Shown: positions 849 through 27,291 of the stretch, piece after piece
Position numbering within the stretch: position 1 is the first letter of the stretch
Layout: each line of letters starts with the position of its first letter
Assembly: GCA_900095875.1 (NCBI GenBank)
Contig: LT608311.1
Span: 496,001-560,000, forward strand
Reading direction: 5' to 3'
Origin: Caecibacter massiliensis
GTDB taxonomy: Bacteria; Bacillota; Negativicutes; Veillonellales; Megasphaeraceae
DNA: 64,000 bases
The notes under the pieces: generated by a model
Database searches by the model: none
What the model was told of the DNA's origin: nothing
What the model saw: the letters and a program-made list of their open reading frames with translations, nothing else
Program-made: the position numbers and the translations under genes

Positions 849-2363
849 TCATTTCTGCATATTTTTCTCAAAAGACCAGGCAATGCCGGCCAGTACGAAA
901 TACACGCAGGGAAGTGCAACGCCGTTACCCCACATCTTGTACTCTGCAGAATCCCGATATGGATTCAGCAGCCATTTAATGATCTGGTTCCTTGTCTTTG
1001 GTTTCGTCGTTTTGCCCAGTGTCCTGCGTTGCGTCTCGAACACATCCTGCCAGAACCGAATCTCCTCTTCCGTCGGGTTCTCCGTTGCAAGGCCGCTGCA
1101 CCACCAGTCCGGGAATCCCTGCAATCTGGCACACTCTGACGGCATCAGGCGTCGGACACGGGCATGGCGGTTGATGAGCGGAGGATCCTTGTAGTCGGTG
1201 GCCACCAGTGACCCGGCCACTTCTTTTGCCGCCCGGGTGAAATGGGAATTCTTGCTGGCACTGTAGGTCAGCTCCACCACAGCGATGCCGCCCTGGTTGC
1301 TCCCCGGTACATTTCCCGAACGGTCGACGGTCCGGCAGGTATCGCTCTCATAGATATGGTTCCGCATATTGCGGGTGCCGTCCGAGGTCTGCCGTACATC
1401 ATAGGTTTTCTTTTCTCTGTTGCCCCCGCCCTGCAGGACCAGCGGCTGGTTGTTGCCGCCCGTCCCGTACCGCGCCGTGAGTGATGGGTTCACAGAGAGC
1501 GGCCCCTTGTACCGGGCATCGGCTCCATGGTTCTCAAACACCGGACCCGGCAGATTGACGATGACCGGAGGATGATGGGCTTCTGCCCGTAAGGTGTTCG
1601 TCCGCTCTTCCGTCACATCCATTCGGATGCCGCCCTGGTCATTCAGGCAGATTGTGCCTGCCGTTCCAGGGCCAGGCGCAAGACGTCCGGCAGCACCCTG
1701 CCATGCTCGGAAGCCCTGCGCAGAATACCCTGACAGGCCCTCGGACTCAAATAGAACCTTTCCGGCACTTTGTCCATCAAAATCTGCGACAAGGTAGATG
1801 CGCTTTCTTCGCTGGGGGACGCCCCAGTATTGGGCATCGAGGACGCGCCAGGCCACAGAGTACCCGTTTCCCAGGATGCATCCCGCAGGCTGCCATCTGG
1901 CACAGCCAGCCACTGAAACCGCAGGGTCTTTGATGCGGCAGATTTCTTCAAGGACCGTCCGGAAGTCCTCTCCCTTGTTGCTGGAGAAAGCCCCAGGGAC
2001 ATTCTCCCACACGATATATCTTGGATATTGTCCATTCGTTTCTTCCCTCATTTCCTTCACGATGCGCACTGCCTGATAGAACAGCGAGGACTGCGAACCG
2101 CCAAGGCCATCCCTTTTTCCAGCAATCGACATATCCTGGCAGGGACTGCCGAAGGTAATGATGTCTACCGGCTCGATTCGTGCGCCGTTTACGGCACTCA
2201 CATCACCGTAATGCTTCACAGATGGCAGCCGTCTCGTCGTCACGCGGATGGGGAACGGCTCGATTTCCGAGTTCCATACAGGACGGATGCCCGCCAGGAT
2301 GGCGCCCAGTTCAAAGCCGCCGCTCCCGGAGAACAGGCTGCCCAGCTTAATCTGTTCCATCAT
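849..2363 (-). CDS. Phage DNA (cytosine-5-)-methyltransferase
   Basis: A 504-residue C5-cytosine methylase that modifies phage and host DNA, probably protecting the phage from restriction. Visible motifs are the SAM-binding motif I LFSGSGGFELG (about residues 10-20), the catalytic Pro-Cys motif GSPCQDMS (Cys75), the ENV motif in YIVWENVPG (about 117-124), the QRR motif in WGVPQRRKRIYLVA, and a C-terminal RLMPSECARLQGFPDWW target-proximal motif. The middle third is long for the family. I chose the ATG at 2363 because GGAGGT sits five bases upstream; a longer in-frame extension would run deep into the upstream gene. The start overlaps the end of the ParB-methylase gene by 17 bases, indicating translational coupling. 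Confidence 0.92.
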   Translation of the reverse strand: MMEQIKLGSLFSGSGGFELGAILAGIRPVWNSEIEPFPIRVTTRRLPSVKHYGDVSAVNGARIEPVDIITFGSPCQDMSIAGKRDGLGGSQSSLFYQAVRIVKEMREETNGQYPRYIVWENVPGAFSSNKGEDFRTVLEEICRIKDPAVSVAGCARWQPAGCILGNGYSVAWRVLDAQYWGVPQRRKRIYLVADFDGQSAGKVLFESEGLSGYSAQGFRAWQGAAGRLAPGPGTAGTICLNDQGGIRMDVTEERTNTLRAEAHHPPVIVNLPGPVFENHGADARYKGPLSVNPSLTARYGTGGNNQPLVLQGGGNREKKTYDVRQTSDGTRNMRNHIYESDTCRTVDRSGNVPGSNQGGIAVVELTYSASKNSHFTRAAKEVAGSLVATDYKDPPLINRHARVRRLMPSECARLQGFPDWWCSGLATENPTEEEIRFWQDVFETQRRTLGKTTKPKTRNQIIKWLLNPYRDSAEYKMWGNGVALPCVYFVLAGIAWSFEKNMQK

Positions 2364-3597
2364 CTGCCACCTCCGCATACGGGATTTTCTCATCCCCGCG
2401 CAGGATAAACACACCCGCGTCCCCATATTCACTGATGTAGCGCCTGACGATGACGTCGACGAACTTCTCGTCCAGCTCGATGCCGTAACAGATGCGGCCC
2501 GTCTGCTGGCAGGCCATGAGCGTAGAGCCGGATCCGAGAAACGGGTCCAAGACGATGCAATGGCTCATAGACGAGTTCTGTATAGGATAGGCCATGAGAG
2601 CTACAGGCTTCATGGTGGGATGCTCTTTGCTGGCTTTCGGCCGGTCGTATTCCCAGATGGTCGTCTGCTTGCGGTCGGAATACCATTGATGCCTGCCGTT
2701 CAGCTTCCAGCCAAAAAGGCACGGTTCATGCTGCCATTGATACGGGCTACGTCCCAGTACCAGGGCGTTCTTCTTCCAGATGCAGCAGCCAGACAAGTAG
2801 AATCCTGCGTCCTTGAATGCCTTGCGGAAGTTCAGCCCCTGGGTATCTGCGTGGAATACATAGATGGAAGCATCCTGCTCCATGTTCTGTTCCATATTGA
2901 CGAAGGCCGCGAAAAGGAACTGGTAGAACTTGTCATCCGGCATATTGTCGTTCTTGATCTTGCCGGCCGTTTCTTCGACATCGACGTTATACGGCGGATC
3001 CGTCAGCACCATGTTGGCCTTCTTCCCCGCCATCAGCCGTTCATAGGTTTCCGGCAGCGTCGCATCGCCACAGATGACGCGGTGGTCACCCAGGAACCAG
3101 ATATCTCCCGCCCGGGCGACGGTCGGCTTTGCCAGTTCACCGTCGACATCAAAGTCATCTTCCTTGATTTTCTTGTTGTACACTTTCGAGAAGAGCTGCT
3201 CGACTTCCGGTGCTTCAAAGCCCGTCAGGTCGATGTTGAAGTCGACGCTCTGCAAATCGACGATGAGGTCGGCCAGGAGCTGTTCGTTCCAGGCACCCGT
3301 GATTTTGTTGAGCGCAATGTTGAGCGCCTTGACCTTATGCTCATCCTCGATATGGACAACGACACACTGGACTTCTTCGTAGCCCAGATTCTTCAGTACG
3401 GTCAGGCGCTGATGCCCGCCGATGACCGTCATGTCGTAATTGACGATGATGGGTTCCACATAGCCAAACTCCTGAATGGACTTCTTGATTTTCTCGTATT
3501 CCTTGTCGCCAGGCTTCAGCTGCTTCCTGGGGTTATATGCCGCAGGCTTCAGCTGGCCGATGGGCAGCATCTTCCATTCCATATCCGATGTCTTCAC
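2347..3597 (-). CDS. ParB-like domain fused to DNA methylase (N4/N6 type)
   Basis: A 416-residue fusion. Residues ~8-100 form a ParB/Sulfiredoxin-like domain (LKPAAYNPRK, then VIGGHQRLTVLKNLG with the GxHR-type motif). Residues ~165-410 are an amino-methyltransferase with TDPPYNVDV (catalytic DPPY at 200-203) and a C-terminal SAM-binding motif in VLDPFLGSGSTLMA and GIELDEKFVDVIVRRY. The motif order (DPPY before FxGxG) indicates a beta-class-like enzyme. Such fusions are common in Firmicute prophages, where the ParB part is thought to bind or hydrolyse nucleotide or guide the methylase to DNA; the role is inferred. It overlaps the HTH gene upstream and the C5 methylase downstream, so the phage carries two methylases back to back. 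MKTSDMEW or the internal MEW (residue 6) could be the start. Confidence 0.9.
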   Translation of the reverse strand: MKTSDMEWKMLPIGQLKPAAYNPRKQLKPGDKEYEKIKKSIQEFGYVEPIIVNYDMTVIGGHQRLTVLKNLGYEEVQCVVVHIEDEHKVKALNIALNKITGAWNEQLLADLIVDLQSVDFNIDLTGFEAPEVEQLFSKVYNKKIKEDDFDVDGELAKPTVARAGDIWFLGDHRVICGDATLPETYERLMAGKKANMVLTDPPYNVDVEETAGKIKNDNMPDDKFYQFLFAAFVNMEQNMEQDASIYVFHADTQGLNFRKAFKDAGFYLSGCCIWKKNALVLGRSPYQWQHEPCLFGWKLNGRHQWYSDRKQTTIWEYDRPKASKEHPTMKPVALMAYPIQNSSMSHCIVLDPFLGSGSTLMACQQTGRICYGIELDEKFVDVIVRRYISEYGDAGVFILRGDEKIPYAEVADDGTD

Positions 3598-11154: not shown

Positions 11155-11189
11155 GTTACTTGTGTTACTTTTGATGCCTAACGTTACTT
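11155..11189 (+). repeat. Three GTTACTT direct repeats in the cargo operon leader
   Basis: GTTACTT occurs at 11155-11161, 11164-11170 and 11183-11189, between the promoter and the AGGAGGT ribosome site of the first gene. The spacing is 9 and 19 bases. It may be a binding site in DNA or RNA for an operon product. Confidence 0.5.
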
Positions 11190-11209: not shown

Positions 11210-12565
11210 ATGATGTTACCGAACATTCCTCACCTATGTGGAGGAATCTTCTTTGATTTATTACTGGAAGCACGTCGGTTTCGTACCAGCCAACGTGACA
11301 CGTTTAACAGCAAAGCAGATGGGCTTTCTGAACCGGATATATACTGCGGTCTGGCAAAGATACTCACAGGGGAGAATCTTTCCAAGTCTCGCGGCACCGC
11401 ATTAAAGAAAAGCGTGTCCAACTATAAAAAATGTGAAAACAGCAAAGGGGATTATGTTCCTTTTACTGATGAAACACTCCAATCGACTTTCAATACAGGC
11501 TATAACGAAAAAAATTCTGCTATCCTCGAAAGGACAGCAGAATTTATAAAGCAATATTTAAATCCAGAAAAATGCAAGTGGCTCGTCCGGGTATTGATTG
11601 ATATTATGCAGAAAGATAAGTCCATATCCCCGGGCACAGAACTTGCTATAAACTTCGGAGAATGTATACCTGTAAGTTGTCTTCATGAAGCCAAAGCCAT
11701 ATACTTTTTGCCTTTTTTCCTCAGTGTTCTACATTATGTCGTTGTTAATTGCCCAGACTGTGAATCCGGTCGCGATACATTCAAGGCCTGGTATACCCAG
11801 TCTTCCCCGAACGCAGCCTGGAAATTAAAGAATGAAATAAAGCAAAACCTTGGTAAAGACGTAAAACCGATAGAAGTTATCATGGATTTAAAAATCCATG
11901 ATGATGTAGAAAAAGATTCTTCAAAAGCTGCCGATAGCGAAGCAGAAAGTCCTGAATCCGAAGATAAAGAACTGACAGTATCTACGGATTCCAAAACCAA
12001 CGAAGAAGTACCCTCAGACCCCCCTCTTTCCCGCCGTGACACTAAACTTTTAGCTGAGTTAATGAGGGACTTCAATGAGCTATTGAAATTCGGCAGCGAT
12101 ACCGACTTAACTATCATGCCTATGCCATCTAGTTATTCGGATAAATTCGACGATGTATATAAGAAATGGGAACATTCCGATAGAAACTTTAAAAACAAGG
12201 AACTGAATAGCTTGAGGGGAGATATCTTAGGAACTTTGTATTGTTATTTTTATTATTGGGGCTGCTATATGTGGTATGAATCTGCCACTGATTGTTTCGT
12301 TCATAAAAAAAACTTATCTCGTGATGCCGAAAAAATAGAAGAAGAACTTCGAAATCGGATAGATTCCGATAGGAAAGCTTGCAAACAGTTGCATGAACGC
12401 CTGTGTCAATATATCATCGACTTCGATATCGTCGTTGAAGATGTCAACAAAAAAGCCACCCCGGGTGAAAGCCACACCACGATTATCCAGAACCAAACGA
12501 ACATCGCCCATAGCGAATCAAAGACATATAATATTAAAGACAGCAACATCATTTTCAACAAATAA
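11210..12565 (+). CDS. Unrecognised protein 1 of AAA_13 cargo operon; C-terminal Asn-rich motif
   Basis: A 451-residue protein that I do not recognise. AGGAGGT lies nine bases before the ATG at 11210; an upstream TTG (11162) falls within the leader repeats. There is no signal peptide. Residues ~1-235 are mixed helical and could include an HTH-like N-terminus (DIYCGLAKILTGENLSKSRG). Residues ~240-280 are a very acidic Ser/Glu/Asp linker. Residues ~285-415 are helical with aromatic-rich LGTLYCYFYYWGCYMWYES. The tail (about 422-450) is a polar beta motif TTIIQNQTN...TYNIKDSNIIFNK that matches residues 16-39 of the next protein. It is the first gene of a tight operon with an ABC ATPase. I infer a sensor or scaffold role in a conflict system; this is not proven. 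Base composition is AT-richer than the phage genes to the left. Confidence 0.85.
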   Translation: MMLPNIPHLCGGIFFDLLLEARRFRTSQRDTFNSKADGLSEPDIYCGLAKILTGENLSKSRGTALKKSVSNYKKCENSKGDYVPFTDETLQSTFNTGYNEKNSAILERTAEFIKQYLNPEKCKWLVRVLIDIMQKDKSISPGTELAINFGECIPVSCLHEAKAIYFLPFFLSVLHYVVVNCPDCESGRDTFKAWYTQSSPNAAWKLKNEIKQNLGKDVKPIEVIMDLKIHDDVEKDSSKAADSEAESPESEDKELTVSTDSKTNEEVPSDPPLSRRDTKLLAELMRDFNELLKFGSDTDLTIMPMPSSYSDKFDDVYKKWEHSDRNFKNKELNSLRGDILGTLYCYFYYWGCYMWYESATDCFVHKKNLSRDAEKIEEELRNRIDSDRKACKQLHERLCQYIIDFDIVVEDVNKKATPGESHTTIIQNQTNIAHSESKTYNIKDSNIIFNK

Positions 12566-12576
12566 GGAGCACCCGA

Positions 12577-13230
12577 ATGAAAATGCCTGCCCGTGTTGAC
12601 CCGCATATCCCTGTCGTGGGCAACAGCACCTACATAGAAAATCAAAGCAACGATAACTATAACATCAATCACAGCAATGTTACTTTCAATATAGCGCTGC
12701 CCCCACAAGGAGCAAGTAACAGTGCGGCACAGATGATAGCTATCGAAAACTTCAGCAAGGAATACTATCAGCTTCTCGTTACCGGTGAGGAGGATGCCTT
12801 TAAAAATAACTATGTTACCGTGCCTAAAGAATATGCGTTGAGCAGACGTTATGTCCCCGCAGAAATACTGGGACGATGTTCATCCCTGTCAGAAGAAGGC
12901 GTCGCTGAACTAAAGACATTTCCCGCCATCATCTGTATGGAAAACGAAAATCCGGGAGGGGTTGCTGGCTCTAATCAATGTGCAATATATGCGTATATAA
13001 CACAGATAAAAAAAGAAAGCCAAGCTATAAAAGTCGTTTTCTGCCCCATCGCTTCTATCCCTCAAAAGGTGCTATGTGAAAAAAAATATGCAGTCTGTTT
13101 CGATTTAAACATGGACTGCGTTATCACGGATCTAAACTGCTGTGCCTGGTCTGTTCATAAAGTGAACCTGTTTGAAGCTTTTAAAGAAGCCGGACTGGAA
13201 AAACTTCCGTTCCCTTCGCAATGGAGGTAA
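12577..13230 (+). CDS. Unrecognised protein 2 of AAA_13 cargo operon; N-terminal Asn-rich motif
   Basis: A 217-residue protein. Its N-terminus carries NSTYIENQSN and NYNINHSNVTFNI (residues 16-39), a near match to the last 30 residues of protein 1. After a Pro/Gly/Ser linker, residues ~60-217 form a soluble alpha/beta domain with FPAIICMENENPGG, AIYAYITQIKK, AIKVVFCPIASIPQ and AWSVHKVNLFEAFKEAGL. That spacing (FPA..EN, then I-T-x-I, then P-x-x-x-L, then W-x-h-K-x-x-N-L) reminds me of small domains found in other bacterial conflict proteins, but I have no name for it. AAGGAG precedes the ATG. It starts 11 bases after gene 1, and the ATPase follows within 6 bases, so all three should be made together. 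I infer an adaptor between protein 1 and the ATPase. Confidence 0.83.
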   Translation: MKMPARVDPHIPVVGNSTYIENQSNDNYNINHSNVTFNIALPPQGASNSAAQMIAIENFSKEYYQLLVTGEEDAFKNNYVTVPKEYALSRRYVPAEILGRCSSLSEEGVAELKTFPAIICMENENPGGVAGSNQCAIYAYITQIKKESQAIKVVFCPIASIPQKVLCEKKYAVCFDLNMDCVITDLNCCAWSVHKVNLFEAFKEAGLEKLPFPSQWR

Positions 13231-13236
13231 TTGCCT

Positions 13237-15582
13237 ATGGATAAAAAATTTCAAAGTGAAATAACACAAATCAAACTTGACGCCGCTACTTTCAAAGAAA
13301 CCGGCGAATGTATAGAGCCAACGTATATTAACTACTTCTTTGGAAATAACGGTACTGGTAAGTCCACTATTGCTAAGGCAATCCAGTCTGGCCTGGGCGT
13401 TACTTATGCTCCCGGAGTGTCTGCAGATGACTGTCAGGTCCTGATTTATAACCAGGAATATATTGACCGTAATATGCAAAACTTCCACAACCTTCCAGGC
13501 GTCTTTACGATGACCGAAGAAAATGCAGAAATCCAGCAGCAGATTGATGAGGCCAGCAGAAAAATAGACGCCGCCCAAAAAATAATCATTGGCGCTGAGA
13601 CAGAAAAAGCTAAACTATATGATAAAAAAAATCGGCTCGACAAGAACCTATATAACGAAGTATGGGAAAAAACGGATACGCTCAGAACCAAGGATTTCCC
13701 CAACACTCAGACAGGGGTATCGAATTCTAAAAAGAAGCTCGCTGAAAAGGTAATGGAATACGCCCCGACTGAGTACGACCTCAATGATTTGAAGCGTATG
13801 TACAGTTCTGCGTATGCTGCCGCTCCTAAAAAATATAAATTGTTCCATACGATTCCTGATTCTTCGGTTCTTGATAATATCGAGGGTAACGATGTCCTTT
13901 CTATTGCCATCGTCAATGCATCTGAAACTCAGCTTGCCGAATTCTGGAAAAATATCAGCAGTGCTGAATGGGTCCGAACTGGTCACGCAGAGTACCATCA
14001 AAAGGCCGGCGGGAAATGTCCTTATTGCTCTCAGACTTTGCCGCCCGATTTTGAACAAAAGCTTACGGAAAGCTTTGATGATCAATATAAAAAGAACCGG
14101 GGCAGACTTGAAAACTTTCTGAGCGACTACAGAGATGCCGCCAACACTCTGTTCATTCCCATATCAAAGATGCCAGAATCTGTTTACCCGGCAATTGACC
14201 TGAAACCCTACAAAAACAAGCTGGATGCTCTCAAAGGAATCATCGCTGCAAACATCCAGCAGATTAATGCCAAAGTAGCCAAACCCGCTAAAATAGTCAC
14301 GTTAGATGATACCGCACCACTATTATCAGAACTTCAGGCACTCATTGAAGGGTATAATAAACTGATAGAGGAAAATAATGCCGTCGTTGATGACGCCCCT
14401 AAGAAAAAAGAAGAGTGTAAAGATAAGGTCTTTGCTTATCTGGCATTTTTTGCAAAGGATATCATGACTGCCTACAGGAACAGTTATGCCGATATCGAAA
14501 AGCAAATAAAAGAACAGCAAGCCATCATTACAAAACAAAATGCTGAAATCAACGAACTCACTAATTCTATTCGAATACTGAACAGTCAAACAAAAGAAAC
14601 CGAATCAGCCATGAACAACATCAATCTCATGTTGAAAGATGCCGGATTCCAGGGATTCGAAGTCTGTCCCCACTGGGAGGAAAAAATATCCCCTGACGGT
14701 TCCGTGCAAAAGATAATCCCATCGCCGGTTCGTAACTACGCTGTAGTCCGTACCAACGAAATTACGGGAGAAAAGGAGATTGCACAAAACCTTAGCGAAG
14801 GAGAGAAAAATTTTATCGCTTTTCTTTACTTTCAGCAGAGCGTGTTCGGCAGCACAGATGCAGAAAACATTCCTCGCAAAAAGATTGTTGTCATTGATGA
14901 CCCTGTATCAAGTATGGACAGCGGTACCCTTTTTATTGTAAGTGCACAAATTCGCAGGATGATCCACATCTGCCGGAATAATGTTGACAACAGGAACCCC
15001 GTTGTAAATGGTAATTTTATAAAGCAAATTTTTATTCTCACGCATAATGCCTATTTCCACCGCGAGGTCACCTACCTATATGCAAATAGATGGGATTTTG
15101 TTTCTTTCTACCTTGTGCGGAAATTCAACAATAAATCATCCGTAACTTTGTATGACCAGCAAAATCCTGACTGTCCTTCCGAAAGGATGAATATCAACCC
15201 GGTCAAAAACTCCTATGCCGCTTTGTGGGAATCTTATAAAGAAGTCAAAAGCGGCATCCCGCTTAAAAGTATTATCCGGAGAATCTTGGAATATTATTTC
15301 CTGCAGCTGTGCGGCTATGAAAGTGACGATCTTCGTAAATGCATTCTGGAAGACCACAGAGATGATTTTATGTATGATGAAAATGGAGCCGAAACGCCGG
15401 ACCGGTATGAGATGGCCAAGGTTCTGCTTTCTTACATCGTTGCCGATAATTCAGGTGTCAACGACGGTATCAACTATACTGATGATTTTCTCGATGTGCA
15501 GTTGTATCGGAATACGTTCAAAATGATTTTCAAATACATGAACCAGGAACAGCACTTCAATATGATGATGGGCATTAGATAG
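13237..15582 (+). CDS. AAA_13 family ABC ATPase, PrrC/RloC class
   Basis: A 781-residue SMC-like ABC ATPase. Seen: Walker A GNNGTGKST (36-44), long coiled coils (about 95-150, 335-470), a zinc-hook-like C261-P-Y-C264, ABC signature LSEGEKNF (519-526), Walker B KIVVIDDPVSSMD (549-561) and the H-loop His603 in LTHNAYF. The layout matches the AAA_13 family that includes the anticodon nucleases PrrC and RloC. The C-terminal ~130 residues contain R681-R682-I-L-E685 and His707, which could correspond to the Arg-Glu-His nuclease triad of PrrC/RloC, but the spacing differs and this needs testing. The ATG at 13237 has GGAGGT eight bases upstream, inside the end of the preceding gene; a TTG six bases earlier is less likely. 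Its genetic partners suggest a toxin or effector gated by proteins 1 and 2. Confidence 0.9.
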   Translation: MDKKFQSEITQIKLDAATFKETGECIEPTYINYFFGNNGTGKSTIAKAIQSGLGVTYAPGVSADDCQVLIYNQEYIDRNMQNFHNLPGVFTMTEENAEIQQQIDEASRKIDAAQKIIIGAETEKAKLYDKKNRLDKNLYNEVWEKTDTLRTKDFPNTQTGVSNSKKKLAEKVMEYAPTEYDLNDLKRMYSSAYAAAPKKYKLFHTIPDSSVLDNIEGNDVLSIAIVNASETQLAEFWKNISSAEWVRTGHAEYHQKAGGKCPYCSQTLPPDFEQKLTESFDDQYKKNRGRLENFLSDYRDAANTLFIPISKMPESVYPAIDLKPYKNKLDALKGIIAANIQQINAKVAKPAKIVTLDDTAPLLSELQALIEGYNKLIEENNAVVDDAPKKKEECKDKVFAYLAFFAKDIMTAYRNSYADIEKQIKEQQAIITKQNAEINELTNSIRILNSQTKETESAMNNINLMLKDAGFQGFEVCPHWEEKISPDGSVQKIIPSPVRNYAVVRTNEITGEKEIAQNLSEGEKNFIAFLYFQQSVFGSTDAENIPRKKIVVIDDPVSSMDSGTLFIVSAQIRRMIHICRNNVDNRNPVVNGNFIKQIFILTHNAYFHREVTYLYANRWDFVSFYLVRKFNNKSSVTLYDQQNPDCPSERMNINPVKNSYAALWESYKEVKSGIPLKSIIRRILEYYFLQLCGYESDDLRKCILEDHRDDFMYDENGAETPDRYEMAKVLLSYIVADNSGVNDGINYTDDFLDVQLYRNTFKMIFKYMNQEQHFNMMMGIR

Positions 15583-20411: not shown

Positions 20412-23400
20412 CTATCTTACTGTTTCTTGTGATTTCTGGATATGTGATCCATATACATCACGATAATCATTCTGAGCTTCATTGTCTTTATCATTAATAC
20501 GGACGCGTTCTACCTTATGCCGGTCATTGTCCTTTCCGGAAATACGATCTACGCGGAAGCGGTCAATATTTTGCACTTTAACCAATTCAGGTCCAAACTC
20601 ATCCACGGAGCGAGCCATATCACCATCAGAAGGTGCTCCATTCTGCAAGGCCCGATAAATAATTGCGGCATATTCATAACGGGTCATGGCCCGGTCGCCC
20701 TTAAATTCTCCATCCGGATATCCCTGTAAATACCCCCGTTCAGCCAATGTTTTCACGTATTGGTAAGCCCAGTGGTTTTCAGGTACATCGGGGAACATCA
20801 TGCTATTGGCTGGATTGGGAACAGCTTTGACATTTTGCCCCGATTCATAAGCAGCCAGTTTTTTAGTGAGCACTTCTATTTGGGCTTTCATGGCCAGCAT
20901 GTCCCTTGCCATAGAAACACGAGAGCGGGATGCATGGTTCTTTTGACCAAACTTCCAACTAACGCCTGCATTCACCATGTTTTCTCCTCCGCTGAAGGAT
21001 CCACCTACGCTGAACATCGTATCCTCATTGGGCCGGTAAAATGCCCCGACAGCTACGGCATGGGCATCTTTATAATTACCGTAACCGACAGCGAAGTCCC
21101 ATTTGTCATCAGGATCAAAATCCAACGGATGCAACCCTGACAGAGCCGCAGCACCGGCACCGACGCGGTTCACCTGATCTCCCAATTTACTGATCCGTGT
21201 TTCCGCCCGGTATAACTGACTCCCGTTTACGGCATCAGTACTGGTCGATGAAATATCTCCAGGAGCTACATGGGTGATCTTATTTCCGCCATTATTCAGC
21301 CCGTCTTTATTGAGGGTAATATCCTGACCGGCAGAACCATTCTGGATTGTCATCCCTCCCGTCGTTACGGTAGTGTCTCCCACGTTGACAGTACTGGCAT
21401 TAACCGTCGTGATATTCCCCGTATCTGCTGTAACGGTCTTCGTCGTAACCGTATCCAGTCCTTTTAAATCTTTTGAAAGGCGCACTTTCAGGTTATCGCT
21501 GCCATCAGATACCACTCCGATATTGTCTTCCGTTGTCAGTCTGGAGGAATCCGTAATGCCCCCGACTACATTTACCTGACCATTGAGTTTTTTATTGATT
21601 ACATTCCCTACATCGCCACCATATTTCATGCCGTCATTCATCGTGGCAACCGTCTGGGTATTCCCATTGTGATCTTCATAGACAATCCGGTCGATACCGC
21701 CAGTACCATTGTAACCATCGGTGCCATCTACTCCATTCGCACCTTTGACAACATGGATGTCAGCAGAAGCACCGTCCTTGCCATTGATGCCAATATGACC
21801 ATCCGTACCATTGGTTCCGTCTTTACCTACAGAAGAAATGGTAACCCCATCTTTGCCATCGGCACCTTTTACCCCCATAGCTCCATTGATGCCATCAGCG
21901 CCGTCTTTGCCCTGACCGCCCACGGTAACCGTATCTGCTTTCAGATTCTTATCCAGTCCGATAACCAGGTTTCCATCTGCATCCACTACAGTCTTGATGT
22001 TGGAAGCATCGTATTCCGTATCTGCTTTTGTGCCATTTCCTTTGATTGTCATGGTGCTGTTCAGTTTTTTAGCTACAGATCCTGTATTTCCAGCAAACTT
22101 CAGTCCATCATCGAGCGTGGCAACTTCATGGGCGACTTGTGCATCATCTTCGTAGACAATCCGGGTCATACCATCGGCACCATTAATACCATCCACGCCA
22201 TCCTGGCCCTTGGCCGATTTCATGGTAAGTCCATCTTTTCCGTCTTTTCCATTCATTCCGATAGAGCCATCTTTGCCATTGATGGTAACAGCTGAGCCAT
22301 CTTTGCCAGCCACACCGATGGAACCGTCTTTGCCATTGATGGTAACAGCTGAGCCATCTTTGCCAGCCACACCGATGGAACCGTCTTTGCCATTGATGGT
22401 AACAGCTGAGCCATCTTTGCCAGCCACACCGATGGAACCGTCTTTGCCATTTTCGCCCTTTTCACCCAGGTTGAGATTGTCATTGACATTAACCATGTAC
22501 GGATTTTCTGCTTTACCAGTGCCAGTAACGGTAGTATTTTTTCCGTCTACTAATTTAGTGGCGTTCTTGGCAATTTCATCTTTCAGCTGGCTGACATTCA
22601 CCGCATCCGTTCCAGCAGTACCGGCAGCCACATTGTGAATCTGATTGCCACCATTATCCAGCCCCTTTTCTGTCAAAGAAACTGCTGAAGTCCCGGCTGC
22701 AGGATTTTTCGGAGTAATCGTAATACCGCTGGCATCAATGGCTGTCTTATTTCCGTCTTTATTCGTAATGGTCATGCCGCTTCCCTGGGTCACGGTCTGA
22801 TTTCCGTCTGCGTCGGTGGTCGTCACACTGTTCACGTTTAGATCATCGTTCAGGACCACTTTCATCGTTCCGTTTTCCACTTTCGTAGAAATATTTTTTC
22901 CGTCCCCGGTAACTTCAATATCCTCTCCCAGAGACTTGTGGACGATATTCCCATCCTGATCCTTTAATCCGAACCCTTTTTCCGTTAAATCAGCAGATTG
23001 TTTCGTCAACTGACTTACGTTGACAGCATCTGTATCCGCTGTACCAGCAGCCACATTAGTAATTTTCGTGCCGTTCGCATTGATTCCTTCCTTGGTCACA
23101 GAAGGTCCGCCAGTTATGGCCACTCCCTGATTGTTTATCGTTGTATCTCCGGCTTTTACCGTCTCAGCGTTTACCGTTTTCGATGTAACACTGTTCAGGC
23201 CGGTTATATCTTTTGCCAGTTTCACGGTCATCGTATTATTGGCAGAATCAGCGACTACACCAATATTATTATCACTTAAATTGCTGCTGTCAGCACCTCC
23301 CAAAAGGGACATAACCTGATCAGAACCGCGATGGAGTACATTGACATCTGCTTCCGAAGCAGTTCCAATGGTCGAATTATCACCGGCAAACCGCAGAGGC

Positions 23401-26400
23401 CGCGTCATGCTGTAAAGCTGGCTTCCGTTCACAGCATCCGTACTCTTTACACTGACCAGACCAGCCGCAACGTTCTGGATGCGCCGTTCTTTCCCCTCGG
23501 ATCCCACCGTTACAATACCAGCAGGCGTCTCCCCGGCATATTGATAGGTTCCGTTGCTGCTGTAAGCATCCTTCCCTTTCGTAGTGGCTCCCGATACAGT
23601 ATAAGCAGAGTTACTGCCCAGATAGACGGAATTCCCCAAAGTTGCTGTTACATGGCTGCCCAAAATTTGGGTATTGGACAAATCCGTATTCTGAGTCGTG
23701 GCATCAAGGGTATTCTGGCTGCCAAGGATTTGGATATCCGTCAAATCCTTGTTTTTCTGATTTTTGGCCCGGACGGTGTTTTTTGAACCGGTAATAACGA
23801 TATCAGATACATTCCCTGCATCGCCTGCTGTACTTGTATCCGGATCCCCGGTAACCATATTCTGATTGCCCGTTACAAAAATATTTTCAAAGGTTTTCGG
23901 GTTGGCAGGATTATTGGAAAGGGATTCCATTTTCAGTACGTTTTGATTCCCAACAATGCGATTGCTGTCCCCTTCCATTCGGTTTTCATTCCCAAAGATC
24001 CCCGAATTCGAAGCACTTACATCAGCAGCTGTACCTGTTGCAGCCGTACTGTTCTGGCTGCCCAAAACATAGGTATTTGCTCCCGTAACCCGGTTTTTAG
24101 TGCCGATTGCCCCAGAAGAAACACCTTCTGCCTGTGCATTTGTCCCCACTGCGAGAGCATTTTCTGCCAGTGCCTGAGCCGTATCACCCATAGCGGAAGC
24201 ACTTTTGCTGTTGCTCTTGGCATCGCTGCCGATAGCGATGGCTTTGTCATCAGAAACGCCAGCAGAATAGCCAATGGCCACAGCTTTATCTACGCTGCTT
24301 CCACCATTTTTTATAGAGGAGGTTGCCAAAGTCCCTATAGCCAGAGAATGATTTCCGGCAGCCTGAGCACCAGCCCCAATTGCCGTATTATATTGATAAC
24401 CGCTGATGGCTAAAGTCTGTTTCAGACTGCCCGGGTTATCCGGATTTTCATAGCCGGCTCCTACTGTGATACTGCCAAGACTCTGCGCTTCAGTATTATT
24501 TCCCAGGGCAGCACTCCTGTCCCCTAAAGCTTTGGCACTTACGCCAGCTGCCATGGAATCCTCACCCGTAGCCAGATCGTTGTCATAGTTATTCAGATTG
24601 GTAGATTTTACAGAATAGTAATGGGTCTTTGCCGTATCCACAAGTTCATTGACCTGGGCTACATTGGCTGCATCGGTCCCCAGTGTTCCTGCAGCGACAT
24701 TATGGATTTTTGTTCCTTTGTTATCAGTATTCCGAAGAGTAATGCTGTCTCCATCTCCGGAAGTGACCGTATCATAATATACTCCACTTGCCGTTGCCGA
24801 AGAAACATTGGCATTGACCTGGGCTACCGTAGCGTCGATTGATTTTTTGAGCTGTGCCACCGTAACGGCATCCTGATCCAGTGCCCCATCAGCAACATTG
24901 GTGATGCGGCGCAAAGCTGATGCACTGCCGACTGAAACAGCCGTCTTAGGGGCTGTCTGCCCCGTCAGATATCCATTACCACTGATCATAGCGGCATTCG
25001 CTACGGAATCATTGCCGATGGCAACATTCCCACCAGAAGCCTGTGCTCCCTGCCCTAAAGCCACACTGGCTGCATCTGCAGCCTGGGCGTTAAACCCAAC
25101 TGCCGTAGATCCATTTCCATTCGCCTGGGCCTGATAGCCTACGGCTACAGCGTCATCAGAAGCGTTTGTCTCACTGCCAAGGGCCGTAGACTGAATCCGT
25201 GATACAGCGGAATCGTTTTTATTGGCATGATAACCAATGGAGACATTTTTTCCTTCCGATGTGTTTCCGCCTGATCCGATATTTGTCCCAGCTTCAGAGC
25301 CAATGGCTACATTATGATCGCTTTTGACATCACTTCCCGCTTTATATCCAATTGCAATATTCTGTTGTCCGTCAATATTGTTGCCGGCACCGTCTCCAAT
25401 GACTACATGGGATCCTTTTGCTCCTAATACGTCCCCTACCATACCTACCCCTGCGTCAGGACCAAGTACGACAGACCGGACGGCATTGGCACTGGCATCT
25501 TTACCTAAAACCACAGAAGCACTGCTGCCAGCAGCGGCTCCGTTCCCAATAGCAACGGCATCGGTCCCACTAGCTTGTGCACTCTTACCCATAGCAAGGG
25601 CATCTGCTCCAGTCGCTGCAGCCTCTGTTCCAGCTGCCATGCTGTCTACACCGGAAGCAGCTGCACTTTTGCCAAAGGCCAAAGCACCTTCTGCACCGGC
25701 CTTTGCACTGTCTCCCACTGCCACGGCACTATGACTATTTTTCGTTACACCAGCGTTATTGCCCATCGCAATTGCATGATTCGAAGCAACCGTACTGGCC
25801 TCAGTTCCAATTGCCACGCTGCTGCTGTTGAGCTGGGCATTGGTCCCATCATTATAAACTGTCGCTCCATCACCTAGTGCAATAGAGGAATTTCCCCGGG
25901 CATTGGCCGCATCACCGATAGATATGCTGGATTTTCCTCCGCCTATGACCACAGTGGAACTGTCACCGTCAGCGGTCATACCATTAAAGGAGCCGCTGAT
26001 AGCTTTCCGGCCAATGGAAATACTGTTTCCAGCCGAGGAAGCAGACCGGGCATCATCGCCCAGCGCAACCGAGCCTGTACCATTCGCTTTTGCGCTGACT
26101 CCAATGGCAACAGCATCTTTTCCCGCAGCCTCAGCGTCTTCTCCTGTAGAATTAGCACGGAAGTACTTCATTCCCGGTTTCGTTTTGTCTAGTCCCAATG
26201 CAGAGTTTACATTTTTTAGCTCTGTAATATCGGCCGTATTATTGTCGATTTTTCCGCTGTTAGTTGCAATTGCCTTTTTGTTCACTGCAATATCTGTTTT
26301 ATTTTGCTGGATTTCATTGGAATTCTGGCTGATTCCGGCCTTATTGTTAGCTATTGCGGTACTGTTAGCGGTAATATTGTCAGCATTTTCACTAATCTTT

Positions 26401-26768
26401 GTAGTGTTTCCAGCAATATCATCCTGATTCTTCTGTACAACAGCCTTTACCGTATTCAATTCTGTAGTGGTCGCCACACCATCTGCCGATATAGTAATCG
26501 TATTGGTTCCATCATCTTTCGTTACCGTAATATTAGTTCCACCATTCAACAAGTCACCGTCATGGACACTCGCAGCCTGGACACTATAGGCACTCCCAAA
26601 CATCAATAACGCGGTTAATACCGTTCTAGTAAATACCCCCCCCCGATAACCGACAATCGTTCTCAACAACGATTTTGCAGATCCTTTCCCGCCATTTTTT
26701 GCCAGTTCTGAAACTACCTGGTATTGCCCTTTAGATCGATTGAATATAATCTTATAAATTCTATTCAA
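20412..26768 (-). CDS. Trimeric autotransporter adhesin with C-terminal SLH domain
   Basis: About 2,118 residues. The frame opens at a GTG inside the ribosome site, but the TTG at 26768, seven bases after GGAGGT, gives the canonical extended signal peptide MNRIYKIIFNRSKGQYQVVS ending near AQA. The passenger has four short coiled repeats, then YadA-type left-handed head repeats (SVALGDDA, AVAIGNGA), many necks (GTDAVNVSQL), a Gly-Lys-Asp-Gly collagen-like stretch with a 57-bp tandem repeat, and more head/neck blocks. The YadA anchor is NGSQLYRAETRISKLGDQVN followed by WDFAVGYGNYKDAHAVAVGA to AGVSWKFG. After it come a coiled coil and an SLH domain (FPDVPENHWAYQYVKTLAER, YEYAAIIYRAL), then a charged tail. 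The anchor forms an outer-membrane barrel; the SLH part should lie in the periplasm and bind peptidoglycan. A nine-G run in the signal peptide suggests on/off switching. Confidence 0.95.
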   Translation of the reverse strand: MNRIYKIIFNRSKGQYQVVSELAKNGGKGSAKSLLRTIVGYRGGVFTRTVLTALLMFGSAYSVQAASVHDGDLLNGGTNITVTKDDGTNTITISADGVATTTELNTVKAVVQKNQDDIAGNTTKISENADNITANSTAIANNKAGISQNSNEIQQNKTDIAVNKKAIATNSGKIDNNTADITELKNVNSALGLDKTKPGMKYFRANSTGEDAEAAGKDAVAIGVSAKANGTGSVALGDDARSASSAGNSISIGRKAISGSFNGMTADGDSSTVVIGGGKSSISIGDAANARGNSSIALGDGATVYNDGTNAQLNSSSVAIGTEASTVASNHAIAMGNNAGVTKNSHSAVAVGDSAKAGAEGALAFGKSAAASGVDSMAAGTEAAATGADALAMGKSAQASGTDAVAIGNGAAAGSSASVVLGKDASANAVRSVVLGPDAGVGMVGDVLGAKGSHVVIGDGAGNNIDGQQNIAIGYKAGSDVKSDHNVAIGSEAGTNIGSGGNTSEGKNVSIGYHANKNDSAVSRIQSTALGSETNASDDAVAVGYQAQANGNGSTAVGFNAQAADAASVALGQGAQASGGNVAIGNDSVANAAMISGNGYLTGQTAPKTAVSVGSASALRRITNVADGALDQDAVTVAQLKKSIDATVAQVNANVSSATASGVYYDTVTSGDGDSITLRNTDNKGTKIHNVAAGTLGTDAANVAQVNELVDTAKTHYYSVKSTNLNNYDNDLATGEDSMAAGVSAKALGDRSAALGNNTEAQSLGSITVGAGYENPDNPGSLKQTLAISGYQYNTAIGAGAQAAGNHSLAIGTLATSSIKNGGSSVDKAVAIGYSAGVSDDKAIAIGSDAKSNSKSASAMGDTAQALAENALAVGTNAQAEGVSSGAIGTKNRVTGANTYVLGSQNSTAATGTAADVSASNSGIFGNENRMEGDSNRIVGNQNVLKMESLSNNPANPKTFENIFVTGNQNMVTGDPDTSTAGDAGNVSDIVITGSKNTVRAKNQKNKDLTDIQILGSQNTLDATTQNTDLSNTQILGSHVTATLGNSVYLGSNSAYTVSGATTKGKDAYSSNGTYQYAGETPAGIVTVGSEGKERRIQNVAAGLVSVKSTDAVNGSQLYSMTRPLRFAGDNSTIGTASEADVNVLHRGSDQVMSLLGGADSSNLSDNNIGVVADSANNTMTVKLAKDITGLNSVTSKTVNAETVKAGDTTINNQGVAITGGPSVTKEGINANGTKITNVAAGTADTDAVNVSQLTKQSADLTEKGFGLKDQDGNIVHKSLGEDIEVTGDGKNISTKVENGTMKVVLNDDLNVNSVTTTDADGNQTVTQGSGMTITNKDGNKTAIDASGITITPKNPAAGTSAVSLTEKGLDNGGNQIHNVAAGTAGTDAVNVSQLKDEIAKNATKLVDGKNTTVTGTGKAENPYMVNVNDNLNLGEKGENGKDGSIGVAGKDGSAVTINGKDGSIGVAGKDGSAVTINGKDGSIGVAGKDGSAVTINGKDGSIGMNGKDGKDGLTMKSAKGQDGVDGINGADGMTRIVYEDDAQVAHEVATLDDGLKFAGNTGSVAKKLNSTMTIKGNGTKADTEYDASNIKTVVDADGNLVIGLDKNLKADTVTVGGQGKDGADGINGAMGVKGADGKDGVTISSVGKDGTNGTDGHIGINGKDGASADIHVVKGANGVDGTDGYNGTGGIDRIVYEDHNGNTQTVATMNDGMKYGGDVGNVINKKLNGQVNVVGGITDSSRLTTEDNIGVVSDGSDNLKVRLSKDLKGLDTVTTKTVTADTGNITTVNASTVNVGDTTVTTGGMTIQNGSAGQDITLNKDGLNNGGNKITHVAPGDISSTSTDAVNGSQLYRAETRISKLGDQVNRVGAGAAALSGLHPLDFDPDDKWDFAVGYGNYKDAHAVAVGAFYRPNEDTMFSVGGSFSGGENMVNAGVSWKFGQKNHASRSRVSMARDMLAMKAQIEVLTKKLAAYESGQNVKAVPNPANSMMFPDVPENHWAYQYVKTLAERGYLQGYPDGEFKGDRAMTRYEYAAIIYRALQNGAPSDGDMARSVDEFGPELVKVQNIDRFRVDRISGKDNDRHKVERVRINDKDNEAQNDYRDVYGSHIQKSQETVR
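22260..22430 (-). repeat. Three-copy 57-bp tandem repeat inside the adhesin
   Basis: Each unit encodes 19 residues (GKDGSIGVAGKDGSAVTIN). The two right-hand copies (22317-22373, 22374-22430) are identical and the first differs by a few bases. Because the unit is a multiple of three, gain or loss of copies keeps the frame and changes stalk length. Confidence 0.9.
26636..26644 (-). repeat. Nine-base C tract (G9 in coding strand) in adhesin signal peptide
   Basis: A C9 run on the plus strand encodes the Arg-Gly-Gly-Val segment of the signal peptide, just before its hydrophobic core. As sequenced the gene is in frame; slippage by one would end translation early. Confidence 0.9.
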
Positions 26769-27291
26769 TCTAATCACCTCCTTTTTAAATAAATATGCTT
26801 TAATAAAGTAAATTTATTTTATTTTACTTTATTATCTCATACATATGTTTTGTTTCATTTTATCATTTATATTTCTATTTCACAACATATTTCCTCATAT
26901 TTTCGTAAGACTAGGATAAGTTTATTATAACAATATGCTGATATTTTTCACGTTAAAACGGTACATTATGCACTATATATTCACTTATTTTGATTTTTAG
27001 TTGCAAAAATAAATCGAACTGTATTTGATACAAAATAGCAAAAAAAGAATATCAGCGCACCATCTATGCGCTGATATTCTTTAATATTTATATATTTTTA
27101 AATTCTTTTATATTCTTATGTTTTATGAATAAATATTCTACTAAATATTATATTTCAATTAGTATCCCCAAAAAGAGATATTTTACAATATTTTGATGAT
27201 GGGCACCCTTGCTCTTGGCTATGGCCTTTTTTCCTCTACCAGACGGCCCAAGGACTTCCACCCATTAAAGTGCGCCCATTCCGAGCGTACC
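26769..27291. other. AT-rich intergenic region upstream of the adhesin
   Basis: No gene is seen in about 520 bases. It must hold the adhesin promoter; many AT-only stretches make a single -10/-35 pair impossible to choose. AAAGGAGGTGATTAGA next to 26768 is the ribosome site. Confidence 0.6.
27044..27082. terminator. Bidirectional terminator hairpin
   Basis: AAAGAATATCAGCGCA pairs perfectly with TGCGCTGATATTCTTT, with an A run before and a T-rich run after. No gene is close on either side, so what it terminates is unclear. Confidence 0.65.

What the first reader, a model, noticed from the sequence alone, without database searches (positions are those of the whole stretch)
12473..12693. Matching Asn-rich motifs on the facing ends of adjacent proteins (amyloid-type pairing)
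The last ~30 residues of protein 1 (TTIIQNQTN..TYNIKDSNIIFN) and residues 16-39 of protein 2 (STYIENQSN..YNINHSNVTFN) share T-x-I-x-N-Q-x-N, Y-N-I-x-x-S-N and F-N. In known bacterial and fungal amyloid signalling a receptor carries such a motif at its C-terminus and the adjacent gene carries the partner at its N-terminus. The two motifs are only ~60 bases of DNA apart, on either side of a gene junction.
Basis: partly seen in the sequence, partly recalled or inferred. Interest (0 to 1): 0.88.

Follow-up and report, generated by a model that had tools for sequence, protein, structure and literature searches.

The report
Matched sticky tails join defence proteins
Neighbouring genes of a phage-borne three-gene (probably anti-phage) system carry matching asparagine-rich tails that change together from locus to locus and are missing wherever the same domains are fused into one protein, so the tails look like a non-covalent, probably amyloid-type coupler between effector and sensor, here attached to an ABC-type ATPase machine instead of the usual NLR receptor.

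Summary
P1 (451 aa) ends and P2 (217 aa) begins with the same kind of Asn-rich motif; P3, the next gene, is a zinc-hook ABC ATPase. Own-pair similarity is far above shuffled (0 of 10,000). Across 72 non-redundant loci the two ends match by locus 'dialect': 56 vs 30 for mismatched partners; partial Mantel r 0.55-0.60 after allowing for P2-body divergence. Codon choice at identical residues is at chance (0.497 vs 0.507), so this is protein-level co-evolution, not recent duplication. Most tellingly, the same P1 head domains occur (i) motif-linked to P2, to a Lamassu docking domain (split LmuA) or to a NACHT protein, and (ii) directly fused to them. The motif is in 179/194 stand-alone head-A proteins and 0/8 NACHT fusions, in all complete stand-alone head-B proteins and 0/2 fused LmuA, and absent from one natural P1-P2 fusion. 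The pair therefore substitutes for a covalent link. Composition, termini, disorder, likeness rather than complementarity, and a RHIM-like core in some dialects point to amyloid-type pairing, which remains untested. Signalling-amyloid pairing outside NLRs was an explicit open question.

The parts
11210..12565 (+). P1, 451 aa, probable effector: head domain A (residues ~1-240), acidic linker, DUF29-like helical insert domain (~270-404), disordered tail with the motif
   Evidence: AF2 pLDDT 79; residues 236-265 and 414-451 below 50; RBS
12476..12562 (+). C-terminal motif of P1 (TTIIQNQTNIAHSESKTYNIKDSNIIFNK)
12563..12569 (+). Shine-Dalgarno-like TAAGGAG of P2, overlapping the P1 stop codon (translational coupling likely)
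   Evidence: sequence
12577..13230 (+). P2, 217 aa, middle component: N-terminal motif plus a PUA/EVE/YTH-like domain (weak fold assignment)
12622..12690 (+). N-terminal motif of P2 (NSTYIENQSNDNYNINHSNVTFN); residues 9-38 predicted disordered (pLDDT < 50)
12745..13206 (+). P2 body (residues ~57-210), possible modified-nucleic-acid reader fold; invariant W191
13231..15582 (+). P3, 783 aa, Rad50/RloC-like ABC ATPase (AAA_13), best PADLOC family PDC-S06
14017..14028 (+). P3 zinc-hook C263-P-Y-C266 (both Cys invariant)
15277..15555 (+). P3 C-terminal R683-x3-E687 ... H775, resembling the PrrC/RloC anticodon-nuclease triad but with a longer E-H spacing
   Evidence: triad from PMC2610378

Best explanation
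The paired ends are a heterotypic, self-similar coupling motif, most likely a signalling-amyloid (cross-beta) motif, that joins an exchangeable effector (P1) to a sensor made of a PUA/YTH-like reader (P2) and a zinc-hook ABC ATPase (P3). Proposed working: P3/P2 detect phage infection (for example DNA ends or modified nucleic acid); the P2 motifs are then exposed or clustered and template the disordered P1 tails into the same cross-beta stack; this gathers and activates the P1 heads (and any third protein with the same dialect), and the cell is disabled. SHOWN by computation: the pair, its conservation, its co-diversification as locus-specific dialects, its protein-level maintenance, its reuse with three unrelated sensor types, and its absence where the domains are covalently fused. 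INFERRED: physical pairing, cross-beta structure, induced (not constitutive) assembly, P1 as effector, anti-phage role. UNKNOWN: the trigger and what P1 does to the cell.
For: Own pairs score 55-57 vs 26-30 for mismatched pairs (z 13-23; n=73/40/22); own partner ranks first in 17 of 22 divergent loci; P1-core and P2-core divergence correlate given P2-body identity (r 0.55-0.60, p=0.0005). P1 tails resemble their own P2 more than the median homologous P1 tail in 22/22 divergent loci, and 68/72 loci have a significant pair. Same-codon use at identical residues 0.497 vs 0.507 expected. HHalign P1-tail vs P2-N-terminus profiles: probability 94.5, E 8e-8. Fusion dichotomy: motif in 179/194 stand-alone head-A proteins vs 0/8 NACHT fusions; in every complete stand-alone head-B protein vs 0/2 fused LmuA; none in the P1-P2 fusion L077. 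Motif-linked to a CTD6 docking protein in L159/L239 (split Lamassu; PADLOC LmuA cut at about residue 144) and to NACHT plus DUF6650 proteins in L199/L200. Extra motif-bearing DUF29-like proteins in L005 and L027. N 3.1x, Q 2.1x, G 1.9x, T 1.7x enriched, K/R/E/L/C/W depleted; median 21 aa, 56/72 gapless. (I/V)Q(I/V)G in 5 P1 and 3 P2 of 76 loci vs 0.45 and 0.62 expected. Motif regions disordered in AF2 monomers.
Against: No amyloid experiment or predictor was run; a small folded beta-structure joining the tails would give the same sequence signals. No member matched a RHIM or any other known motif profile in Pfam at E <= 1. The window's own pair differs in internal spacing and lacks the RHIM-like core. 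P3 may carry its own RNase-like triad, so the system might not need P1 as effector. No functional data exist on any of these loci.
Confidence: 0.62

Rival explanations
1. Constitutive tether: the two tails form a small, stoichiometric beta-structure (for example a two-chain beta-arch or split beta-helix) that permanently holds effector and sensor together; no amyloid and no templating.
For: The fusion dichotomy shows only that the motif can be replaced by a covalent bond, which is what a static tether predicts.
Against: Partners are alike rather than complementary, N/Q/G/T-rich, and three or four different proteins in one locus can share one motif (L133 and L148 with two P2 copies, L199/L200 and L027), which fits homotypic stacking better than a dedicated heterodimer. 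RHIM-like cores occur in some dialects.
Confidence: 0.28
2. The resemblance is a by-product: recent duplication or gene conversion, or convergent low-complexity Asn-rich tails without a shared function.
For: All tails are Asn-rich; the motifs are adjacent in the DNA.
Against: Codon identity at identical residues is at chance; own partners beat other equally Asn-rich tails; pairing persists with a Nudix-like gene between P1 and P2 (L041) and with unrelated partner bodies; motifs are absent in fusions.
Confidence: 0.03
3. P1 is an inhibitor or sensor and P3 (RloC-like ABC-RNase) the only effector; the motif pair keeps P3 silent through P2 until infection breaks it.
For: P3 keeps R-x3-E and His in the order of the PrrC/RloC triad; PrrC is silenced by partner proteins (PMC3710099).
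Against: The E-H spacing is 87 rather than 36-52 residues; P1 heads occupy the effector end of LmuA and the N-terminus of NACHT proteins, in loci without P3.
Confidence: 0.15

Closest known systems
BASS motifs: bacterial amyloid signalling sequences of NLR-effector gene pairs (10 families; PMC7889193, PMC8086366)
   Same: Short (20-40 aa) similar motifs, effector C-terminus to receptor N-terminus, adjacent genes, many families; L199/L200 have exactly this layout with a NACHT receptor
   Different: In the window and nearly all relatives the receptor side is not an NLR but a PUA-like protein plus ABC ATPase, or a Lamassu core; reported BASS come mainly from filamentous actinobacteria and cyanobacteria, these mostly from phages and prophages of Bacillota (some Corynebacterium)
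Lamassu / ABC-3C (LmuA-LmuC-LmuB; review PMC10586767)
   Same: Three-gene order effector - middle component - zinc-hook ABC ATPase; head B is the N-terminal half of one LmuA family; P3 hits LmuB PDLC03859 at 3.6e-20
   Different: P2 matches no known middle component; P1 has no docking CTD and instead the motif; P3 is closer to PDC-S06/RloC
RloC/PrrC anticodon nucleases (ABC ATPase + HEPN RNase; PMC2610378, PMC3710099)
   Same: P3: AAA_13 over the full length, zinc hook, R-x3-E ... H
   Different: With P1 and P2 upstream; E-H spacing longer; nuclease activity unknown
PDC-S06 (PADLOC phage-defence candidate)
   Same: P3 is a clear member (E 1.6e-193)
   Different: The PADLOC label names the ATPase protein only; here it stands in a three-gene unit with paired motifs

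Membership tests
BASS-type amyloid signalling pair | Similar motif at effector C-terminus and at N-terminus of the adjacent-gene partner | tested here: met
BASS-type amyloid signalling pair | Partner is an NLR (NB-ARC/NACHT) | tested here: not met
   window P2/P3 have no NACHT/NB-ARC match; met only in L199/L200
BASS-type amyloid signalling pair | Motif belongs to BASS1-10 profiles | not testable with these tools
   profiles not held; no Pfam motif family matched; RHIM-like core only in some dialects
BASS-type amyloid signalling pair | Motif forms amyloid and cross-seeds its partner | not testable with these tools
   needs ThT, EM or seeding assays
Lamassu / ABC-3C | Operon effector - middle component - ABC ATPase | tested here: met
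   gene order and conservation, (effector role of P1 is inferred)
Lamassu / ABC-3C | Known middle component (MC/LmuC) family | tested here: not met
   no Pfam MC or PADLOC LmuC match to P2
Lamassu / ABC-3C | Effector with ABC-3C C-terminal docking domain | tested here: not met
   none in window P1; in L159/L239 the CTD6 is a separate, motif-bearing protein
Lamassu / ABC-3C | LmuB-type ATPase | tested here: inconclusive
   PDLC03859 E 3.6e-20, but PDC-S06 far better
RloC/PrrC | ABC ATPase with R-X3-E-X36-52-H triad | tested here: inconclusive
   R nearly invariant, E and H invariant, spacing 87
PUA/EVE/YTH superfamily (P2 body) | Fold | tested here: inconclusive
   nearly all top VIA rows are PUA-type readers (DrmA N-terminus, VcaM4I, EVE, YTH, TgMcrB) but Z at most 6.6

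The most novel reading that the evidence does not exclude
Phage-borne bacterial immunity uses a general plug-and-socket amyloid: locus-specific 'dialects' insulate parallel systems, and one motif type lets the same effector heads be exchanged among ABC-ATPase/PUA sensors, split Lamassu cores and NACHT receptors, so amyloid templating is a sensor-independent signalling layer in prokaryotes.
Probability: 0.5. Interest if true: 0.92.

Novelty: new variant of a known kind. Interest (0 to 1): 0.84.

Why it matters
A 2021 review of amyloid signalling asks in so many words whether signalling amyloids exist in pathways not dependent on NLRs (PMC7889193). This family gives about 70 natural, non-redundant, matched pairs in a non-NLR setting, with natural fusions as controls, mostly in phages and prophages of ordinary (non-filamentous) gut Bacillota. 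The dialects provide a ready-made specificity matrix for cross-seeding tests, and the split LmuA shows how defence effectors can be exchanged without remaking protein interfaces.

Tried and rejected
Recent duplication or gene conversion: rejected by codon test. Chance or Asn-rich composition: rejected by mismatched-partner controls. Pfam, NCBIfam, PHROG and PDB sequence searches gave no family for P1 or P2; the weak ZorC hit of P2 (E 0.0013) and DUF29 hit of P1 (E 0.1) were not followed up. P1 fold search gave only generic helical-bundle matches to the insert domain; head A has no assigned fold, but a two-domain model can hide weak matches. P0004 (the P1-P2 fusion) found no relative in viral contigs, so that fusion rests on one 4.2-kb MAG contig. 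The first genome-contig scan failed for lack of conserved stretches. Paper searches found no report linking amyloid motifs with Lamassu/ABC-3C or RloC-like systems, but the library is open-access only and the original ABC-3C paper is not held.

Full report
WHAT IS THERE. The window holds a compact three-gene unit on the + strand: P1 11210-12565 (451 aa; the GTG at 11162 is a less likely start, an AGGAGG lies just before ATG 11210), P2 12577-13230 (217 aa) and P3 13231-15582 (783 aa). It sits among early genes of a phage: primase/helicase, anti-repressor, deoxyribosyltransferase and methyltransferase/ParB genes on the other strand, and a nearly identical copy occurs in a 54.8-kb IMG/VR viral contig. 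P3 is an AAA_13 ABC ATPase (E 2e-109; PADLOC PDC-S06 E 1.6e-193) with an invariant CPYC zinc hook and a C-terminal R-x3-E...H. P1 and P2 match no Pfam or NCBIfam family above threshold.

THE OBSERVATION. Local score 64; 0 of 10,000 shuffles reach it.

HOMOLOGUES. P2 homologues were fetched from genomes, phages, viral contigs and genome contigs, and independently anchored on P3 and P1, so that most loci were not chosen for the motif. Nearly all P3 loci have P1 and P2 upstream. Nearly all have the motif pair, in many 'dialects', e.g. ...NQYGNNSIQIGSVDTI... / ...TQTGERSMQIAQANNV......GDGNMVIPNYGTI... / ...GNDNVLIPNYGTV......EQSGKGTQIGFVENYYE... / ...EQSGKGKQIGFVQHYEE......GSGDIYSDIGTLN... / ...GSGDIYSNIGTIN.... 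Four loci have two tandem P2 genes; in L133, L135 and L148 both copies carry the motif of their locus.

STATISTICS. For 73, 40 and 22 loci (P2 bodies below 90, 60 and 45% identity) own pairs score 56.4, 55.1 and 56.8, mismatched pairs 29.7, 28.4 and 26.5 (z 22.6, 17.1, 13.3); in the most divergent set the own partner is the best of 22 in 17 cases. P1-core and P2-core similarities correlate over locus pairs after removal of P2-body identity (r 0.60, 0.60, 0.55; Mantel p 0.0005). In windows not trimmed to the alignment a P1 tail is closer to its own P2 (56.8) than to homologous P1 tails of other loci (33.3), in 22 of 22 divergent loci; 68 of 72 loci have an individually significant pair. At 771 identical residues the same codon is used in 49.7%, expected 50.7% from local codon usage: the likeness is kept at protein level. 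P1-tail and P2 N-terminus profiles match by HHalign (probability 94.5, E 8e-8). Median motif 21 aa, 50% identical, 56 of 72 gapless, N/Q/G/T-rich and poor in K, R, E, L, C, W.

ROSETTA STONES. (1) L077 encodes P1 and P2 as one 395-aa protein without either motif. (2) Head A is fused to NACHT proteins: eight long fusions, none with a motif (two of them profiled, both NACHT, one also SNaCT14; the others share head, length and ends); in L199 and L200 head A is a separate protein ending in a motif, followed by a NACHT-SNaCT14 protein and a further protein (DUF6650 in L199) that both begin with it. (3) Head B is the N-terminal half of a Lamassu LmuA family. In L230 and L232 it is fused to CTD6 (326-328 aa, PADLOC LmuA PDLC03857 over the full length; in L232 MC2- and LmuB-like reading frames follow), with no motif. 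In L239 LmuA is cut in two: head B (PDLC03857 1-144, E 1.6e-18) ends ...VNQYGDHPVHIDHVENLKL and the CTD6 protein (PDLC03857 144-325, E 1.7e-68) begins ...VNQYGDRSVHADHVENLNV, followed by MC2- and LmuB-like genes; L159 is the same with head A, and there CTD6, MC2 and LmuB are confirmed by profile. (4) The DUF29-like domain is inside P1 in the window, L013, L016 and L035, but is a separate protein with its own N-terminal motif in L005 and L027. Together: motif in 179/194 stand-alone head-A proteins, 0/8 NACHT fusions; all complete stand-alone head-B proteins, 0/2 LmuA fusions. The counts include redundant loci. The pair stands in for a peptide bond.

STRUCTURE. AF2 models: P2 body confident (pLDDT mostly above 90), motif 9-38 below 50; P1 head and insert domain confident, tail 414-451 below 50. 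The P2 body resembles PUA-type readers of modified nucleic acid (DrmA N-terminus, VcaM4I, EVE, YTH, TgMcrB; Foldseek E at best 0.013, VIA Z at most 6.6): consistent but weak.

MECHANISM. Most likely: P3 and P2 sense infection; P2's N-terminal motif recruits and templates the P1 tail; clustering activates the effector head. That the tails join the proteins is strongly supported by the fusion dichotomy; that the join is cross-beta amyloid is supported by likeness instead of complementarity, composition, terminal and disordered position, multi-protein sharing, the NACHT layout of L199/L200 that equals published amyloid NLR pairs (PMC7889193), and (I/V)Q(I/V)G cores (5 P1 and 3 P2, 0.45 and 0.62 expected).

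KNOWN OR NEW. It works like BASS signalling but fails the NLR criterion; it is built like Lamassu/ABC-3C but fails the MC and CTD criteria. I found no paper joining the two (open-access library only). Hence a new variant of a known kind, which bears on an explicit open question.

LIMITS. No wet-lab data, no multimer model, no amyloid predictor; L077 is one MAG contig; MAG-derived loci include frameshifts (L066) and possible misbinning.

Noticed in passing
L041:4459-4920: A Nudix-like gene (Nudix box by eye) lies between P1 and P2, yet the two motifs still match.
   Followed up: partly
L008, L009, L010, L011 between/after P2 and P3: Several loci have a small gene (annotated excisionase / VrlI-like) between P2 and P3, and methyltransferase or restriction-like genes downstream.
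   Followed up: no
L133:3703-4975, L135, L148:3749-4988, L154: Two tandem P2 homologues; in L133, L135 and L148 both carry the motif in the dialect of their locus.
   Followed up: partly
L088:1338-4330: The P1 gene is interrupted by about 1.6 kb between head and DUF29-like part, unlike its close relative L087.
   Followed up: no
L101 / L036 and L099: Extra long genes lie between P2 and P3.
   Followed up: no
L160 and L179, downstream of the head A-NACHT fusion: The fusions are followed by a further conserved gene pair that was not identified.
   Followed up: no
window 20412-26777 (-): A 2121-aa protein with only a partial match to a phage family of unknown function (phrog_20057).
   Followed up: no
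window 849-3597 (-): DNA methyltransferase and ParB-methyltransferase genes near the cassette.
   Followed up: no
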